6,465 nucleotides of DNA. Origin: Terriglobales bacterium (GTDB lineage: Bacteria > Acidobacteriota > Terriglobia > Terriglobales > Gp1-AA117). Below, one piece after another: positions 1,064 to 6,465 of this stretch. The notes under the pieces are model-generated. The model was not told where the DNA came from, searched no databases, and saw nothing but the letters and a program-made list of their open reading frames with translations. The stretch covers positions 1 to 6,465 of the forward strand of contig JASLFF010000170.1 of NCBI GenBank assembly GCA_030150795.1, given 5' to 3'. How positions within the stretch are numbered: the first letter of the stretch is position 1; each line of letters begins with the position of its first letter. The translations under genes and the position numbers were made by a program.

Positions 1064-1069
1064 CTCCTT
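1064..1069 (-). promoter_or_regulatory. Ribosome binding site AAGGAG deciding the start of the coiled-coil gene
   Basis: AAGGAG on the minus strand, 10 bp before ATG at 1053. Its first two bases are part of the TAA stop of the pilX-like gene (1068-1070). This supports the 1053 start over upstream in-frame Mets and suggests coupled translation. Confidence 0.75.
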
Positions 1070-2693
1070 AGTACATGATTTCGTGCGTCGCCAGCAATTG
1101 AGGCGGCGTGCTGCCACCGAGTCTCTTCAGCGCGCAAACGTCATACTGGAAGTTGATGCTGCCGCCAAAGTTATCGCCCTGCGGCTGATTGGTGGCGTTC
1201 ACGTCGTCGCCGGCAAGGATCGCACCATACAGGTTTGTGCTGGCGCCGGCGCCGCCGGTGAAGGAAACTTTGCCCCGCACCAGGATCAGTCCGTACCAGT
1301 TCAATCCACCGTTGATGTCAAGATCGCCGTCCACAATCAGGATGCCGGACCCGCTGGCGGCAGAAGTCAAATGGACGCTGCCCGGAATGTATTCTGTCAC
1401 TGGGGTATAACTTCCCACAGCCGGCTCACTCGGCAAGCCTGTCGGGTAGGTTCCGAATGTCTGGCTGCTCTGCGTACCACAATTCTCATAGGTAGCAGGT
1501 GTGGTTGTAAGGTCCTGTGTGCCAGTGCACGTAAAGGGTGGGATTGTGGCCCCGGCCTTATACTTATCGATCAGATTGTTGATGTTCAGGGAGTTTGGCC
1601 AGGGATTTACGCCCTGGACCGATGGCCCTACCGTAGTGGTTGTTCCCGAAGTTGGATCGCTTCCGTAGCTGGTTATCGTGCTTCCAGAATTGCCAATCAC
1701 GCCCACTGAATTCTGCGTAAAGATAGCATGCGCAGAGGTGGCACAAGCGTTGGCGGGTTGACCTGCGCGTGGGGAACAACTGGTAACCTGATGTGAACCG
1801 CTTCCCGTAGTGCCACAACTGCATGCGCAATTGTCATACGCATTCAGTATGTAGCTTCCCTGCAAGCTCACTGGCGCCATAACAGAAATCGGGGCTGGCG
1901 GAATGAGCGGCGGGCTCAAGGCCACTTCCATCTGCACCATGCGTCTCGATCCCGGATTGCCACCCATCTTTGGCGTAACCGCCAGAGAGGTGATTTCCCA
2001 CACAGGCATCACGGTTGGCGACTGGGTTGCGCACGTTCCGCTAGTGACCACCACTTCCTGGCTGCCATCCCAGCAAACTTGCTGGCCGTTCCCAAGCGCG
2101 CTATTTACCTTTGTACCTGACGATCCCAATGCTCCCATCAGGTTCTGCTTGGCGGCGATTCTCACCCACTTAAATGGCAGCGCGTCCGCCCCGTTCACGC
2201 CGGCGGTCTGCGTCATGGTTGAAGCTGTAAAAGCGGTTGCACTGGTCAGCAACTGACCGCTCTGGCCATTTGAGCCGCAAGGGCCCGCGCCTGGAGTCAA
2301 AGTCAGATTCGCATATCTTTCCCAGCAAAGCTGATCGTCCAGGTATGGATTTACATCCAGAGTGCTTCCCGCAGCCGTGGTGGGATCAATGGCTTCGCTG
2401 TTGGTCGGGTTCTTCAGATAAATCATCTGGAACGGAGAATTCGTGTTCAGCGCCAGGGCATTGGCATTGAGCGTGGCATCCCTGACCAGAAGCAGGCGCG
2501 CGTCTTCCGCTCCCGCGCGTGCAGCAAAGTATGCTTTTTGCGAGTCGCGGTAATTATTGTTCACGCTGTTTTCCGTGTCAGCCATGAACATGAGCCCCAT
2601 GCCGATTGCGGCAAGCAGAAGCAGAGCGAGTAATGACACCATCATGGCTATGCCACGCTGGGATTTCAGTCGCTTTGTAATTTTTCCGTTCAT
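1068..2693 (-). CDS. PilX-like large minor pilin with long C-terminal extracellular region
   Basis: A 541-residue type IV pilus assembly protein with a PilX N-terminal domain. The leader (residues 1-14, basic, ending SQRG) precedes a hydrophobic helix (15-37) and the PilX-type continuation NNNYRDSQKAYFAARAGAE (45-63). Mature position 5 is Val19, not Glu, as in PilX/GspK-type tip pilins. The protein is much longer than classical PilX (about 200 aa). Residues 115-260 resemble a pilin globular domain, and 266-272 are Pro-rich. Residues 289-317 form a Cys cluster including C289-x-C291-x-C293. Residues 438-496 are Gly-rich with short beta-like repeats (GILIVDGDLDINGG, WYGLILVRGKVSFTGG), reminiscent of polymer-forming or bactofilin-like strands. 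There are 12 cysteines, so disulfides are likely in the exported protein. A strong SD lies 5 bp upstream of the start. It lies 9 bp after the pilW-like gene. Its expected role is at the pilus tip or in priming. Confidence 0.88.
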   Translation of the reverse strand: MNGKITKRLKSQRGIAMMVSLLALLLLAAIGMGLMFMADTENSVNNNYRDSQKAYFAARAGAEDARLLLVRDATLNANALALNTNSPFQMIYLKNPTNSEAIDPTTAAGSTLDVNPYLDDQLCWERYANLTLTPGAGPCGSNGQSGQLLTSATAFTASTMTQTAGVNGADALPFKWVRIAAKQNLMGALGSSGTKVNSALGNGQQVCWDGSQEVVVTSGTCATQSPTVMPVWEITSLAVTPKMGGNPGSRRMVQMEVALSPPLIPPAPISVMAPVSLQGSYILNAYDNCACSCGTTGSGSHQVTSCSPRAGQPANACATSAHAIFTQNSVGVIGNSGSTITSYGSDPTSGTTTTVGPSVQGVNPWPNSLNINNLIDKYKAGATIPPFTCTGTQDLTTTPATYENCGTQSSQTFGTYPTGLPSEPAVGSYTPVTEYIPGSVHLTSAASGSGILIVDGDLDINGGLNWYGLILVRGKVSFTGGAGASTNLYGAILAGDDVNATNQPQGDNFGGSINFQYDVCALKRLGGSTPPQLLATHEIMY

Positions 2694-2698
2694 GTTGT

Positions 2699-2704
2699 CA
2701 CCTC
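2699..2704 (-). promoter_or_regulatory. Ribosome binding site GAGGTG of the pilX-like gene
   Basis: GAGGTG on the minus strand, 5 bp before ATG at 2693. It overlaps the TGA stop of the pilW-like gene (2703-2705), so the ribosome finishing PilW sits on the PilX initiation site. It is the strongest SD in the operon. Confidence 0.7.
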
Positions 2705-3362
2705 AGTTATTTACTAAACGTGCCATGCCTGTCATGGTTACCTGAATGCTTTTGTGTGCGTCGTTATCCTGCACTACGCCCTGTGTGGTAAGCGTAATTT
2801 GTACGGCCTTGATTTTGGATAGGTTGCCGGCCGATGCCGGCAACGTTATGGAGTTCCCGTTGACATCGAATGCGGTGAAAAATGAAGTGCCTATCACATT
2901 TTGCACTTGGGTATATGTTGTTGCCGGCCCCGCGGAGCCCTTGGCTAATTGGCTGCGGCGTATGCACGGGCATGGATTGGGCGCGGAGCTTGTCCAGCCG
3001 GAACCGTCAAAATAGCTGTATTCGACAACGTCCACCGCGCCATCGCCATCGACATCGCCTTCAATCACAATGTCATTACTGGAAAGAGAAGTAAGTCCCA
3101 GTGCCACCTGGTTGGCCGTCGCGCTGCCGCCATACATTGGGGCAGAAGGATAACCGGCCTGATGCAGATCGCGCGTGAACTGATCGATAAATTCGCGCTC
3201 CTGCTGCGTCAGGTCGACTTTCTGGTCTTCCACCCTGTAACGCACCTGCGCGCGATCAATCTGTGAGAACACTGCGCCCACTACGATTGAAAGCAAGAGC
3301 ACTACCATTAACATTTCAATCAGGGTGAAGCCGGATTGCCGTGAATGCTTTTTGTTCTTCAT
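2703..3362 (-). CDS. PilW/GspJ-like minor pseudopilin with an EF-hand-type calcium loop
   Basis: A 219-residue minor pilin. The prepilin leader MKNKKHSRQSG (1-11) is followed by FTLIEMLMVVLLLSIVVGA (12-30), giving prepilin peptidase cleavage after Gly11 and Glu16 at mature position 5. Residues 46-70 (a charged helix ending FTRDLHQAGYP) are typical of the PilW/GspJ group, where the long first helix runs into the head domain. Residues 103-114 read DVDGDGAVDVVE, which fits the EF-hand ligand pattern DxDxDGxxDxxE at every position. A CPC motif follows (131-133). The C-terminal end (184-219) has alternating strands (VQITLTTQG, SIQVTMTGMARL) typical of the pseudopilin sheet. It lies 7 bp after the pilV-like gene and 9 bp before pilX. 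Its expected role is in the initiation/tip complex of a type IV pilus. A type II secretion role is less likely because PilX and PilV partners are present. Confidence 0.87.
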   Translation of the reverse strand: MKNKKHSRQSGFTLIEMLMVVLLLSIVVGAVFSQIDRAQVRYRVEDQKVDLTQQEREFIDQFTRDLHQAGYPSAPMYGGSATANQVALGLTSLSSNDIVIEGDVDGDGAVDVVEYSYFDGSGWTSSAPNPCPCIRRSQLAKGSAGPATTYTQVQNVIGTSFFTAFDVNGNSITLPASAGNLSKIKAVQITLTTQGVVQDNDAHKSIQVTMTGMARLVNN

Positions 3363-3369
3363 GGAAATC

Positions 3370-3912
3370 TCACATTCCTACAATCGTGCGCAGTGATACC
3401 GGCGCGATGTATGCCATAGCGTGGCTCTTGTTGTAACTGGTAGGATGGCCGGCGGCAACAATCACCAACTTGGCCCCGCTGGGGAGCGTTGTCACGTGCC
3501 AGCGCACGTCATAAGCAGTCTGCAGGCCGTTGCTGCTGCAAACCGTGTAGTTGATCTGATAGTTCGCAACCGGAGCGACCGTGAAATCCACGTCTCCATT
3601 TCCCGCCAGCGTCGCTCCCAGCCCGCCCCCCGTCGCGCCCGCGGTTGTCACTGAAAAGTTATTGTTTGCGCAGTCCGTCAACGGCAGCGTGACATCATTA
3701 TTTGCGGGCACTGCTGAGATTGCTTCCAAAACAGCCTGCGCCGCGTTGGTGGCGGTGGTGTCCATGCGGCTCGTGTTGTCCCGCGTCATTCCCAGCAGTA
3801 TCATGACCATTCCGCCGAGGACGCCAATGGTCAAAACAACCATGGCGACCAATAATTCCACCAGGGTGAAACCCTTGGCGTTCTTGCGCGAATTTCTGTT
3901 TTTATGTTTCAT
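3370..3912 (-). CDS. PilV/GspI-like minor pilin
   Basis: A 180-residue minor pilin. The basic leader MKHKNRNSRKNAKG (1-14) is followed by FTLVELLVAMVVLTIGVLGG (15-34). Cleavage falls after Gly14, and Glu19 is at mature position 5. The VLTIGVLGG segment and the following MTRDNTSRMDTTATNAAQAV (42-61) match the PilV pattern of a hydrophobic helix leading into an Ala-rich helical stretch. The head domain contains Cys81 and Cys125, a possible disulfide pair, and a Gly-rich loop (92-106). The YDVRWHVTTLP segment (134-144) is typical of PilV/GspI heads, which often read YxVxWxV. The ATG at 3912 lies 9 bp after the GspH-like stop, with only a weak GAG upstream as SD. PilV proteins join PilW and PilX in the type IV pilus priming complex in the inner membrane; that role here is by homology. 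Confidence 0.87.
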   Translation of the reverse strand: MKHKNRNSRKNAKGFTLVELLVAMVVLTIGVLGGMVMILLGMTRDNTSRMDTTATNAAQAVLEAISAVPANNDVTLPLTDCANNNFSVTTAGATGGGLGATLAGNGDVDFTVAPVANYQINYTVCSSNGLQTAYDVRWHVTTLPSGAKLVIVAAGHPTSYNKSHAMAYIAPVSLRTIVGM

Positions 3913-3921
3913 AAATTCTCG

Positions 3922-4560
3922 CTATATCCAGCAGGCTGTATAGCCACATGCGCTGCTTCCACCGGTCTGCTGGGAAAGTCTCCAGCTCTTGATTCTGCCG
4001 GACGGCGTCACCGTAATCGCCTCCCAGCCTCCCGCGCTTTGCATAAACCATTCAAATCCGGCGCTTGTTGCGCCACAGACCGTGGGATTGCCGCCGGTTT
4101 CAGTGCAGGGCAAGCCTCGCGCGTTGAAACCGATACTTCCACCCACCTGCGGGCCAGTACTGTTTAAATAGGCATCCAGTTGCGCGTGATCAGGCGGTGT
4201 CGTCTGAAATGAAACAGCCGAAGATATCTGGACTTCAGGATTGCCGGTCGCAACCGTCGTGTTTGCCGGATCATTGGTCACGAATGCCGTGTTCACTGAC
4301 GTGCCATTCGAAAAATTTGCATAGGCAGGCAGGTTCGTCTTTACAGCCTGCATTCTGGCCTGCTGCAGCAGACTGGCAACCGAATGCCCCGCAGAATCAA
4401 GCTGGTAATTCCGGAACGCACGGTAAATGTTCGGAATGGCCATGCCTGCAATGAGCACCATGATCACGCAAACGATCATCAATTCCACCATCGAAAACCC
4501 GGACTCCCGGTCCCTCATCGCAGGTGAATCGTGTTTTTTGCCTTGATAATTGAATGACAT
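3922..4560 (-). CDS. GspH/FimT-like minor pseudopilin, first gene of the pilin operon
   Basis: A 212-residue pseudopilin (from ATG 4560). The prepilin site is ESG|FSMVELMIV with the cleaved Gly at residue 21, and Glu26 is mature position 5. The hydrophobic helix runs to about residue 45 (MAIPNIYRAFRNYQLDSA follows). The GspH/FimT head is recognisable from ASLLQQARMQAVKTNLPAYA (62-81), SIGFNARGLPC (142-152) and ITVTPSGRIKSWRL (182-195). Four cysteines in the head (152, 162, 205, 210) probably form disulfides. No start has a clear SD. The alternatives are TTG at 4575 (5 residues longer) and ATG at 4518, which would leave a 7-residue leader MRDRESG of more classical length; the choice between 4560 and 4518 is open. 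It is first in the pilin operon, 9 bp ahead of pilV. FimT/GspH proteins act as minor pilins, and some FimT proteins bind DNA during transformation. DNA binding cannot be judged here. Confidence 0.85.
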   Translation of the reverse strand: MSFNYQGKKHDSPAMRDRESGFSMVELMIVCVIMVLIAGMAIPNIYRAFRNYQLDSAGHSVASLLQQARMQAVKTNLPAYANFSNGTSVNTAFVTNDPANTTVATGNPEVQISSAVSFQTTPPDHAQLDAYLNSTGPQVGGSIGFNARGLPCTETGGNPTVCGATSAGFEWFMQSAGGWEAITVTPSGRIKSWRLSQQTGGSSACGYTACWI

Positions 4561-4945
4561 AATGTTTTCAACCAACCGCCGAATGGAACACCGCTGCAGC
4601 CGCTTGGAATGAACGGCCTTTCAAATCTAGCCCCTAAGCCAGGGAACTTAAAGGTGACGTAGGTACCTAATCGCGAACGTACATCGTCAACTTTGGTAAC
4701 GTGGAAATGGCCCTGTACTTGCGGGTTCTTCAAAACGCTTTTAGCGGCTTTCGGCATGCCTCAACAGATGCAACTATTTGCGCGCATCCCGGTGGCATTC
4801 CTTGGGGTTCGATGCCGCCTCTTTAGCAGTGTGCAATTTGTTATCCAGCAAATGGAGATCAGAGGAATTCTGCGGTTAGGCGACGAATTTGCTGAACGCA
4901 ACGCGCTCAGCGGGTAGCGGATGGCGCCGGGTTATTGAACCGTGC
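4561..4945 (-). other. Gene-poor spacer upstream of the pilin operon
   Basis: About 385 bp without a convincing gene on either strand. Short open frames exist but lack an SD, family resemblance or a sensible start. It contains a sigma-54-like promoter candidate (4832-4847), a perfect 10-bp palindrome TAGGTACCTA (4660-4669) and a GCTGCAGC palindrome around 4591-4600. Its position suggests it holds the promoter and a long 5' leader of the minor-pilin operon. A decayed gene cannot be excluded. Confidence 0.4.
4832..4847 (-). promoter_or_regulatory. Candidate sigma-54 promoter for the pilin operon
   Basis: On the minus strand the sequence reads TGG-ATAACAAA-TTGCA, which keeps the GG-N10-GC spacing of -24/-12 promoters. 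The TTGCA (-12) half is perfect, but the -24 half matches only TGG of TGGCAC. It lies about 270 bp upstream of the first pilin start, implying a long leader. Pilin genes are sigma-54 dependent in several bacteria. One such match in the window by chance is plausible, so confidence is low. Confidence 0.25.
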
Positions 4946-5428
4946 TTAGTGGCTTTGGATTGCCGTAATAGATGTTGCAGAAAGCATCCAGCGGCTTTTG
5001 ACATCTTGCCAGAGTGACAATACACGGAACCCTCCGGGCGACGCCAGCCCCGGAGTAGATGCCTGAACGTGAAAGATGTAAGTAACTTTCATGTCTGGGC
5101 CTTCAGGATGGACTTCAACTTCCCCTAACGAGAACTCCCGCATCTGCGCGCTTTGCCATTGCTGTAACCAGCCGGCACGATCAAACATTTGACCATCCGC
5201 CATCACGCCAGTAAACGTGGGGGAAAGATGGCTTTCGACATTGAGCCAGTCTTTTGCCTGAATGGATTGCCACATCAGGCGCTCATGCTGCTCCGCGCCG
5301 GTGGCGTTCTTCCAGGTAGGGTGCTTTGGCTCACCGGCACAGCCGACAAGCAGAAAACAAACCACAAAGGACACGAAGAAACACAAAGGAAGAAAGAACC
5401 GGGATTTAGTTTCGCAGGAACTCAACAT
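4946..5428 (-). CDS. NTF2-like (SnoaL/DUF4440-type) predicted lipoprotein
   Basis: A 160-residue predicted lipoprotein from ATG at 5428. Residues 1-29 are a signal peptide with a very hydrophobic core (FFLPLCFFVSFVVCFLL, 11-27) and the lipobox L27-V28-G29-C30, so Cys30 should be lipidated. The mature part looks like an NTF2 fold: a helix with HERLMWQSIQAKDWLNVESHL (48-68), FTGVMADG (72-79), then paired strands SLGEVEVHPEG, KVTYIFHVQA and FRVLSLWQDVKSRWMLSATS. This order is typical of DUF4440/SnoaL-like domains, which bind small molecules or act as subunits; no function can be assigned. A longer frame starts at ATG 5509 (187 residues) with a GAAGG 6 bp upstream. I prefer 5428 because it gives a normal signal peptide, but no SD precedes it. 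The odd point is that the signal-peptide core is encoded by one arm of the inverted repeat at 5364-5506. The gene lies downstream of the Tes-like gene. Confidence 0.7.
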   Translation of the reverse strand: MLSSCETKSRFFLPLCFFVSFVVCFLLVGCAGEPKHPTWKNATGAEQHERLMWQSIQAKDWLNVESHLSPTFTGVMADGQMFDRAGWLQQWQSAQMREFSLGEVEVHPEGPDMKVTYIFHVQASTPGLASPGGFRVLSLWQDVKSRWMLSATSITAIQSH

Positions 5429-5506
5429 ACAATCACGGGCCAATCGACGTAAGCATAACAAAAAAGGCACAAAGTTTAATCCTTTGTGCCTCTTCGTGTC
5501 CTTTGT
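5364..5506. repeat. Inverted-repeat element (CACAAAGG/ACACGAAG type), MITE-like
   Basis: Two 27-bp arms, 5364-5390 and 5480-5506, are reverse complements at 25 of 27 positions (mismatches only in the middle) with an 89-bp spacer. Each arm carries ACAAAGGACACGAAG followed by CACAAAGGA. A further partial copy in the spacer next to the right arm forms a perfect 10-bp hairpin (5465-5474 with 5482-5491, 7-nt loop). I recall this CACAAAGGACACGAAGG-type sequence as a frequent dispersed repeat in acidobacterial, deltaproteobacterial and planctomycete genomes. The left arm lies inside the lipoprotein gene. No transposase is present, so any mobility would need help in trans. Confidence 0.75.
5465..5491. 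repeat. Hairpin inside the right part of the inverted-repeat element
   Basis: A perfect 10-bp stem AGGCACAAAG / CTTTGTGCCT with loop TTTAATC. It shares its 3' half with the right arm, so this arm can pair either locally or with the distant left arm at 5364-5390. The two alternative folds would compete in RNA. On the plus strand an A-run precedes it, so on the minus strand the hairpin is followed by a TTTTTT tract. It is therefore terminator-like for minus-strand transcripts coming from the Tes-like gene. Confidence 0.55.
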
Positions 5507-5525: not shown

Positions 5526-5571
5526 GCGCAAGCACATGAAAATCGGTTTTTCGACCTTGTGGTTAGTTCGG

Positions 5572-6465
5572 CTAGTCGCCGAAAACTTCTTCCTTCTTTT
5601 CCTGCTGCAATTCTGCTTTCGGAGCAGCGGGAGCGATAGCGGCCAGCGGAATGAACCCGCCTTGCGGCTCAGGCTTGGGTTCTTTCAGGATGTGCTCGCG
5701 ATAAAGCGCTTCCATCCGGGCATCCTCTGCGCTTTTCTTCAGCTTGCTGTCCCGCGCGCGGAGCTTTTCTTCACGAGCAGTCTTAGCAATGCCCAGATCG
5801 TCCAGCGTGGTGTTGCGCCCCGCGTGCACGTGCTCTTCATTCAGGTTCAGCTTGTGCGCGCTCTGGTTCAGCCCCACGGCCTTGCCGCCGGCAAAGATTT
5901 CATGGCGTCCGTGCTCTTCATACCACTTGGTAAGCGTGGCCGTCATGTGCATCTTCTCAATGATGTTGCGCCAGCCGACACCGGTGTTATAGGCGCAGAA
6001 GCTGATCTCGCCTTCCTGCGTGGCGTAAGGAATGATGCACTGCTCGGTGCGTCGGAAGTCGTAGTTGTAAAGGTCCTGGAACCACATTCCAGCGATGAAC
6101 AGGAAGTTCCAGCGATCAGTGCGGCGCTTCTTGATATCTTCAATCGTGCGCTCGCCATCGACCTTGCCGTACTTTTCGTCGGCTTTCTTGGTCGCGCCGA
6201 ATGTCTTGTCGAATTTGCGGAGAAGGTCGATCAGTTTGAAGTGCTTGGGGGCCTGGAACGGATCATAATTGCGCGCCAGAGCCAGGGCCATTCCGAAGAC
6301 CGAGAGGAACCGTCCGCGGCCGGCATCATTCACTTTGGCCACGTCCTGCGCAATGCGATCGCCATTCAGGAACGCCGTCACGGGAACTGCTTCCTTGGTT
6401 TCTTTGTCGATCATCACTGCCATGCCGACGCCGCAGTTCGGGTGGCATACGCAGCTAAGTTGCCC
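5572..6465 (-). CDS. Tes-like radical SAM protein, C-terminal part (runs off right edge)
   Basis: The C-terminal 297 residues of a protein whose frame is open to the right edge. The Met at 6423 is internal, because coding continues upstream with LSCVCHPNCGVGM. The fragment matches my recollection of the archaeal tetraether lipid synthase (Tes) family. It has a CVCHPNCGVG cysteine cluster (residues 5-14) followed by VPVTAFLNGD, and a downstream segment LYNYDFRRTEQC...GEISFCAYNTGVGWR (132-166) with Cys143 and Cys157. Such cysteines hold auxiliary iron-sulfur clusters or mononuclear iron in Tes. The radical SAM CxxxCxxC site would lie upstream of the window. Residues 214-297 are a charged tail (EEKLRARDSKLKKSAEDAR, then Pro/Lys/Glu-rich) beyond the usual core. 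Tes couples lipid tails at their methyl ends by radical C-C bond formation. In acidobacteria a homolog would fit iso-diabolic acid or branched tetraether lipids. Another radical SAM subfamily remains possible. Confidence 0.65.
   Translation of the reverse strand, partial: GQLSCVCHPNCGVGMAVMIDKETKEAVPVTAFLNGDRIAQDVAKVNDAGRGRFLSVFGMALALARNYDPFQAPKHFKLIDLLRKFDKTFGATKKADEKYGKVDGERTIEDIKKRRTDRWNFLFIAGMWFQDLYNYDFRRTEQCIIPYATQEGEISFCAYNTGVGWRNIIEKMHMTATLTKWYEEHGRHEIFAGGKAVGLNQSAHKLNLNEEHVHAGRNTTLDDLGIAKTAREEKLRARDSKLKKSAEDARMEALYREHILKEPKPEPQGGFIPLAAIAPAAPKAELQQEKKEEVFGD

What the first reader, a model, noticed from the sequence alone, without database searches (positions are those of the whole stretch)
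5364..5428. A dispersed-type repeat arm encodes the signal peptide of a lipoprotein
The left arm of the 5364-5506 inverted repeat, read on the minus strand, encodes residues LCFFVSFVV in the hydrophobic core of the lipoprotein signal peptide, and the adjoining element sequence supplies its start (ATG 5428) and n-region. The LVGC lipobox follows immediately outside the arm. This suggests that a non-coding mobile repeat was co-opted as an export signal, turning a soluble or differently exported NTF2-like protein into a lipoprotein. T- and C-rich repeat strands naturally encode Phe/Val/Leu runs, so such repeats could seed signal peptides repeatedly in a genome.
Basis: partly seen in the sequence, partly recalled or inferred. 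Interest (0 to 1): 0.7.

Follow-up and report, generated by a model that had tools for sequence, protein, structure and literature searches.

The report
Palindromic DNA repeat became signal peptide
In a group of soil bacteria, a short palindromic DNA repeat that is scattered through related genomes supplies much of the export tag of a lipoprotein, apparently in place of an older tag, and a repeat of the same kind forms the export tag of an unrelated transport protein.

Summary
On the minus strand the right arm of a palindromic repeat (5389-5360) encodes residues 14-23 (PLCFFVSFVV) of a DUF4440 lipoprotein signal peptide. ATG 5428 and the n-region lie in the loop; the lipobox starts three codons after the arm.

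The repeat is dispersed: 24-113 copies in each of nine congeneric genomes, against 0-3 for the reversed-pattern control.

The repeat became part of an export signal but created no lipoprotein: 26 relatives with a native-type signal peptide and five outgroup sequences have another signal peptide before the matching Cys. Two sister genomes, about 90% identical on both sides, differ in having the fusion, with 53% identity in the block between.

Repeated seeding is partly borne out. All six readable SBP_bac_5 orthologs of the genus carry such a repeat in the signal peptide, in another frame; one SBP_bac_1 gene elsewhere is a candidate. Most copies stay intergenic (231 of 289; 132 of 141).

Export is inferred, not shown. 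Closest precedents: Yersinia RU-2, Rickettsia palindromic elements.

The parts
4946..5428 (-). DUF4440 (NTF2-like) putative lipoprotein gene, 160 aa
   Evidence: PF14534 40.7 bits against cut-off 25.2; 251 homologs
5342..5428 (-). predicted signal peptide, residues 1-29, MLSSCETKSRFFLPLCFFVSFVVCFLLVG
   Evidence: translation; judged by eye, no signal-peptide predictor was available
5360..5389 (-). right arm of the palindromic repeat, encodes P14-V23 PLCFFVSFVV
   Evidence: exact core match 5360-5378; inverted partner
5339..5350 (-). lipobox LVGC, Cys codon 5341-5339
   Evidence: translation; G29 and C30 invariant among 55 aligned rows
5390..5474 (-). loop of the element, holds ATG 5428 and the n-region
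5475..5506 (-). left arm of the palindromic repeat
5461..5495 (-). terminator-like hairpin with T-run, shares the left arm
5546..5564 (+). possible separated left end of the element (AACCACAAGG on the minus strand), three mismatches
   Evidence: inference
5572..6465 (-). upstream gene, radical-SAM-like (C-terminal part), syntenic in relatives
   Evidence: NCBIfam Tes E 4.6e-17, 61.8 bits against cut-off 450; same gene end seen in relatives

Best explanation
A dispersed palindromic repeat (ends AACCAC...GTGGTT, mostly about 80-150 bp) lies between the upstream gene and this gene in most of the relatives read. In the window and in several relatives the gene's own start and n-region are gone; translation begins inside the element's loop, runs through the pyrimidine-rich right arm and joins the last residues before the old lipobox. 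The arm thus serves as the hydrophobic core of a Sec/lipoprotein signal peptide, while the lipidation site is inherited. The element suits this because a palindrome with a purine-rich left and a pyrimidine-rich right arm reads as basic or polar residues followed by hydrophobic residues in all three frames. Shown: anatomy, dispersed copies in relatives, relatives with another signal peptide before the matching Cys, and a second gene family of the same build. Inferred: that the protein is exported and lipidated, that the short native signal peptide is ancestral, and that the arm is kept for its peptide.
For: Exact arm and inverted partner. Dispersed copies with near-zero control. Native-type relatives: 22 of 120 listed homologs (97 fused, 1 undecided) plus four genome loci, and five outgroup sequences with other signal peptides. 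L035 and L036 have the palindrome ending a few nt before an intact native start. Sisters L034 (fused) and L036 (native): upstream gene 90%, mature part 89%, downstream 85% identical, block between 53%. No start codon between arm and Cys in the window. Second family: six of six readable SBP_bac_5 orthologs. 25% of 261 frames through 87 elements look signal-peptide-like, against 1.5% of shuffled and 3.5% of random genomic stretches.
Against: No experiment and no signal-peptide predictor. The start is uncertain (no clear Shine-Dalgarno; open frame to ATG 5509). The fused label needs 21-22 changes on the tree of the mature part, so the history is not one clean gain; recombination or chimeric metagenome contigs may contribute. 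Most copies are intergenic. A wider peptide search for other families found nothing useful.
Confidence: 0.78

Rival explanations
1. The palindrome is kept for an RNA or DNA role (terminator of the upstream gene, hairpin at the gene start, recombination site), and reading the arm as a signal peptide is a tolerated by-product.
For: The left arm forms a terminator-like hairpin and the full element a strong stem. In the SBP family the arms stay complementary, 0.70-0.93, even where the repeat subtype differs (L147). Most copies are intergenic.
Against: In the window nothing else can supply the core of the signal peptide; and the mature part with its Cys is conserved among the relatives. The two roles do not exclude each other.
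Confidence: 0.13
2. Annotation or assembly artefact: the true start is elsewhere, or the mixing of signal-peptide types comes from chimeric metagenome contigs.
For: Many homologs come from short metagenome contigs; near-identical mature parts with different signal peptides, such as P0093 and P0118. REP authors warn that N-terminal repeats may be misannotation (PMC3733652, passages).
Against: L034 is on the contig also held as L001 (49 kb record), L035 on a 447-kb record, and L036 on a contig of about 732 kb, and they show both states; no start lies between arm and Cys in the window.
Confidence: 0.06
3. Chance resemblance of a pyrimidine-rich signal-peptide core to a repeat.
For: Hydrophobic codons have T at the second position (general knowledge).
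Against: Exact 19-nt core match, inverted partner of 32 nt 79 nt away, and the same layout in orthologs.
Confidence: 0.02

Closest known systems
RU-2 / YPAL palindromic repeat of Yersinia in YPO1552 (Delihas 2007, PMC2759123; passages and section 16 seen; review PMC2229807, passages seen)
   Same: [quoted passage not shown] relatives have predicted signal peptides unrelated to the repeat.
   Different: Other repeat and phylum; there one locus conserved in two species, here two families in a genus with old and new forms side by side, and a lipobox that stays fixed.
Rickettsia palindromic elements (RPE; seen through passages of PMC2229807 and PMC3733652; originals not read)
   Same: Palindromic repeats of about 100-150 bp read in frame inside protein genes.
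   Different: RPE inserts are described as tolerated extra segments; here the repeat supplies the export signal and nothing else could.
REP repeats of the GTAG and CGTC classes (PMC3733652, passages seen)
   Same: Short dispersed palindromes, mostly intergenic, sometimes within reading frames.
   Different: Their stems are 5-13 bp; here arms of about 30 nt, and no GTAG or CGTC tag (4 of 74 elements have either within 10 nt, random 15%).
Coding palindromes in Nematomorpha mitochondrial genes (PMC6649704, search listing only)
   Same: Both arms of an inverted repeat are read as protein.
   Different: Mitochondrial genes, no link to export in what I saw.

Membership tests
Bacterial lipoprotein signal peptide (signal peptidase II type) | basic n-region, hydrophobic core, lipobox with Cys | tested here: met
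   By eye on the translation: K8 and R10, core from F11 on, LVGC; G29 and C30 invariant in 55 rows
Bacterial lipoprotein signal peptide (signal peptidase II type) | lipidation and cleavage at Cys | not testable with these tools
   needs an experiment
DUF4440 (PF14534) | score above the Pfam gathering threshold | tested here: met
   40.7 bits against 25.2
MITE | terminal inverted repeats | tested here: met
   arms of about 30 nt with AACCAC...GTGGTT ends; 74 elements with exact ends, which were selected for these ends
MITE | target-site duplication | tested here: not met
   direct repeats of 2-8 nt at the borders near or below shuffled expectation in 74 elements
MITE | mobilised by a partner transposase | not tested
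   no transposase was searched for
REP (GTAG or CGTC class) | GTAG or CGTC at one end | tested here: not met
   4 of 74 within 10-nt flanks, random 15%
Protein-coding palindromic repeats (RPE-like, as a kind) | palindromic repeat read in frame within a gene | tested here: met
   window, and L143-L148 for SBP_bac_5
RPE proper | sequence relation to Rickettsia elements | not tested
   no comparison was run

The most novel reading that the evidence does not exclude
This palindromic repeat acts as a ready-made, exchangeable signal-peptide cassette: its purine arm encodes a basic or polar n-region and its pyrimidine arm a hydrophobic core whatever the frame, so turnover of the repeat at gene starts has repeatedly replaced export signals in Acidobacteriota, in at least two and perhaps three protein families, while the lipidation site stayed fixed.
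Probability: 0.45. Interest if true: 0.78.

Novelty: new variant of a known kind. Interest (0 to 1): 0.6.

Why it matters
Well-documented cases of how signal peptides arise or change are few, to my knowledge. Here close relatives carry an older and a repeat-derived signal peptide before the same Cys, so the replacement can be mapped and tested. The sense/antisense symmetry of a purine/pyrimidine palindrome gives a simple reason why a non-coding repeat can become an export signal, and it shows that repeats at N-termini are not always misannotation.

Tried and rejected
Own genome: not held, so relatives were used. The genome-contig scan with alignment A1 gave 3 loci; the genus of these holds 9 genomes, all with an ortholog (one search repeated it).

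A composite artificial peptide of element-like segments was searched for further gene families: one hit at E 0.51, of no use; the method has little power. Rfam: no match at gathering threshold. Target-site duplication and REP tags: not found. Literature by repeat sequence: 41 papers hold one of five strings, 20 listed, none by its title about a repeat family. The other searches listed the Delihas and REP papers but nothing that I recognised as this repeat. Any remark that it is undescribed rests on these eight searches and on partly shown listings.

Rejected: 'soluble protein turned lipoprotein' (relatives are lipoproteins); a single clean gain (21-22 changes); chance resemblance. A first impression from 300 nt of flank that upstream gene and mature part disagree in kinship was dropped when 750 nt showed L034 and L036 as nearest on both sides.

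Full report
What is there. On the minus strand, after a radical-SAM-like gene (5572-6465; best NCBIfam match Tes, E 4.6e-17, far below its cut-off), the window has a palindromic repeat and then a 160-aa DUF4440 gene (4946-5428; PF14534). The arms 5364-5395 and 5475-5506 are 32 nt and 88% complementary. The core of the right arm, 5360-5378, matches CYYYGTGNNCYYYGTGGTT exactly. As protein, 5389-5360 reads PLCFFVSFVV, residues 14-23 of the signal peptide MLSSCETKSRFFLPLCFFVSFVVCFLLVG before Cys30. ATG 5428 and the n-region lie in the loop, and three codons separate arm and lipobox. The left arm is part of a terminator-like hairpin, 5495-5461; the stretch 5506-5455 folds at -22.7 kcal/mol (z -7.5) and the strand 5506-5364 at -57 (z -8.2). 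Both structures use the left arm, so they exclude each other.

The repeat is dispersed. No whole genome is held for the window. In the nine genomes of the genus reached through orthologs, the core with at most one mismatch occurs 47, 68, 59, 42, 94, 113, 74, 37 and 24 times (G001, G200, G137, G003, G109, G053, G172, G186, G002), against 0, 1, 1, 3, 1, 0, 0, 0 and 1 for the reversed pattern. In the phylum 57 of 297 genomes drawn have at least one exact match, patchily, up to 71. Seventy-four elements chosen for exact AACCAC and GTGGTT ends have length quartiles 78, 85 and 145 bp, T-rich bases just outside, no excess of border duplications and no REP tag.

The fusion stands where relatives have another signal peptide. 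Of 120 listed homologs (251 found), 97 have a repeat-type signal peptide, 22 a short native type such as MRFLLTLMAFAVLAGC and 1 is undecided; labels were set by regular expressions and by eye. Both types precede the same conserved start of the mature part, CAGEPKHPTW and the like. Whether a repeat lies upstream of the native type is unknown for most of these proteins. At DNA level, among nine genome orthologs plus the window: window, L034 and L037 are fused; L039 is fused with a worn arm and an unclear start; L040 looks like a degenerate fusion; L035 and L036 have a palindrome that ends a few nucleotides before an intact native start; L038 has the same, but an in-frame upstream ATG behind AGGAGG also reads through the arm; L064 has an N gap and a native start; L041 shows no such repeat. 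The outgroup loci L042, L043, L044, L046 and L047 have other signal peptides before their Cys. L034 (fused) and L036 (native) are nearest to each other: 90% identity in the upstream gene, 89% in the mature part, 85% downstream, but 53% over the gapped alignment of the block with element and signal peptide. So the block turned over locally.

The history is not one clean event. On a quick tree of the mature part (134 rows, 131 columns, many unresolved forks) the fused label needs 22 changes, 12 of them forced by well-supported branches; 21 without the undecided row. P0093 (fused) and P0118 (native) hardly differ in the mature part. Recombination near the lipobox, turnover of the element and chimeric metagenome contigs could all contribute; the genome pair above shows that part of it is real. 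The fused proteins, as far as readable, use the FVSFVV frame, which fits one origin followed by exchange as well as selection for the most hydrophobic frame.

A second family. In G003 an SBP_bac_5 protein (L019; PF00496 E 6.7e-94) begins MFKNNHKGHKGAQRRK...LCAPSCPLWF...LLSC: left and right arm of one palindrome as n-region and core, in a frame other than that of DUF4440. Seven of nine genomes have an ortholog, one (L149) matched only from residue 318. All six others carry the repeat in the signal peptide. In L143-L147, by eye, the start ATG overlaps a stop (TATGTTTAA, or TATGTCTGA in L147); in L019 that stop ends a 381-aa frame that I take from recall for an anhydro-N-acetylmuramic acid kinase, not tested. 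L147 has another repeat subtype at the same place; its arms are 0.77 complementary though only about 0.6 identical to the other species' arms. Of 120 listed protein homologs, 41 were too short or not parsed; of the 79 others 50 show both arms by my loosely tuned regular expressions, several more show one, and some (such as P0183, P0190) show none.

How often. Of 289 distinct arms in the loci fetched from the nine genomes (the listed exact copies of G001, G002, G003, G053 and G109 as good as all, those of G137, G172 and G200 in part, none sought in G186), 231 are intergenic, 16 inside genes in antisense, 1 inside in sense, and 41 lie in an open frame that runs into a same-strand gene; gene calls are from a simple codon score. 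By my reading of the 41, six are signal-peptide fusions (L001, L037; L019, L144, L146, L148), one lies inside an acyltransferase gene (L237), and the others have a start codon after the arm or are doubtful. In G271 and G260, chosen from the phylum for their many copies, 132 of 141 arms are intergenic, 4 antisense and 5 in frame; one of the five, L305, looks like the signal peptide of an SBP_bac_1 protein (E 2e-34) that would start at TTG. No relatives of L305 were compared. Co-option is therefore seen, but rare among copies.

Why it works. The right arm is open and hydrophobic in all three frames (mean hydropathy 2.5, 1.4, 2.1), its complement hydrophilic in all three (-3.0, -2.7, -3.0). Of 261 frames through 87 two-armed elements (some overlap each other), 25% are open throughout with a net positive left end and a hydrophobic right end, against 1.5% of shuffled and 3.5% of random genomic stretches. 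Frames open throughout were 51%, against 42% of random genomic stretches, so the excess comes from the character of the arms more than from openness.

Known or new. Delihas (PMC2759123, passages and section 16) found Yersinia RU-2 to form part of the predicted signal peptide of YPO1552, whose relatives have unrelated ones; his review (PMC2229807, passages) also tells of Rickettsia palindromic elements read in frame and tolerated. De-tailed REP work warns that N-terminal repeats may be misannotation (PMC3733652, passages). The present case is the same kind of event with another repeat, in lipoproteins, in at least two families, with old and new forms among close relatives: a new variant of a known kind. 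Export itself remains inferred.

Noticed in passing
L237 742-2403 (minus), G053: An acyltransferase gene (PF01757, E 9.8e-26) carries two repeat stretches in frame between its predicted membrane parts.
   Followed up: partly
L147 (G137), start of the SBP_bac_5 gene: A different palindrome subtype (CACGGAGA units) sits at the same place in the signal peptide as the CACAAAGG subtype of other species.
   Followed up: partly
L305 1-1284 (minus), G260: SBP_bac_1 gene whose likely signal peptide reads through a short palindrome; TTG start, relatives not compared.
   Followed up: partly
window 5461-5495 (minus): The left arm can pair either in a terminator-like hairpin or with the signal-peptide arm; a regulatory switch was not tested.
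   Followed up: partly
window 5546-5564: AACCACAAGG stretch (minus strand) where relatives have the element's left end; the left arm may have been split by an insertion.
   Followed up: no
L138 near 1500, G137: Acyl-CoA-dehydrogenase-like frame runs from the arm without the usual start seen in L030, L227 and L246 (name by eye).
   Followed up: no
G469, G306, G271, G260: Genomes differ in the dominant repeat subtype, such as CCCCGTG, CTCTGTGACC or CTTTGTGTTC, as if copies within a genome were kept alike.
   Followed up: no
L041 (G137), upstream of its DUF4440 gene: A different short repeat (CACAGAT-like units) stands in the intergenic place where other genomes have the palindrome.
   Followed up: no
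window 1068-4575 (minus): Four genes with pilin-like N-termini (three N_methyl matches, one weak PilX_N) follow the DUF4440 gene; a MutY-like gene ends the window.
   Followed up: no
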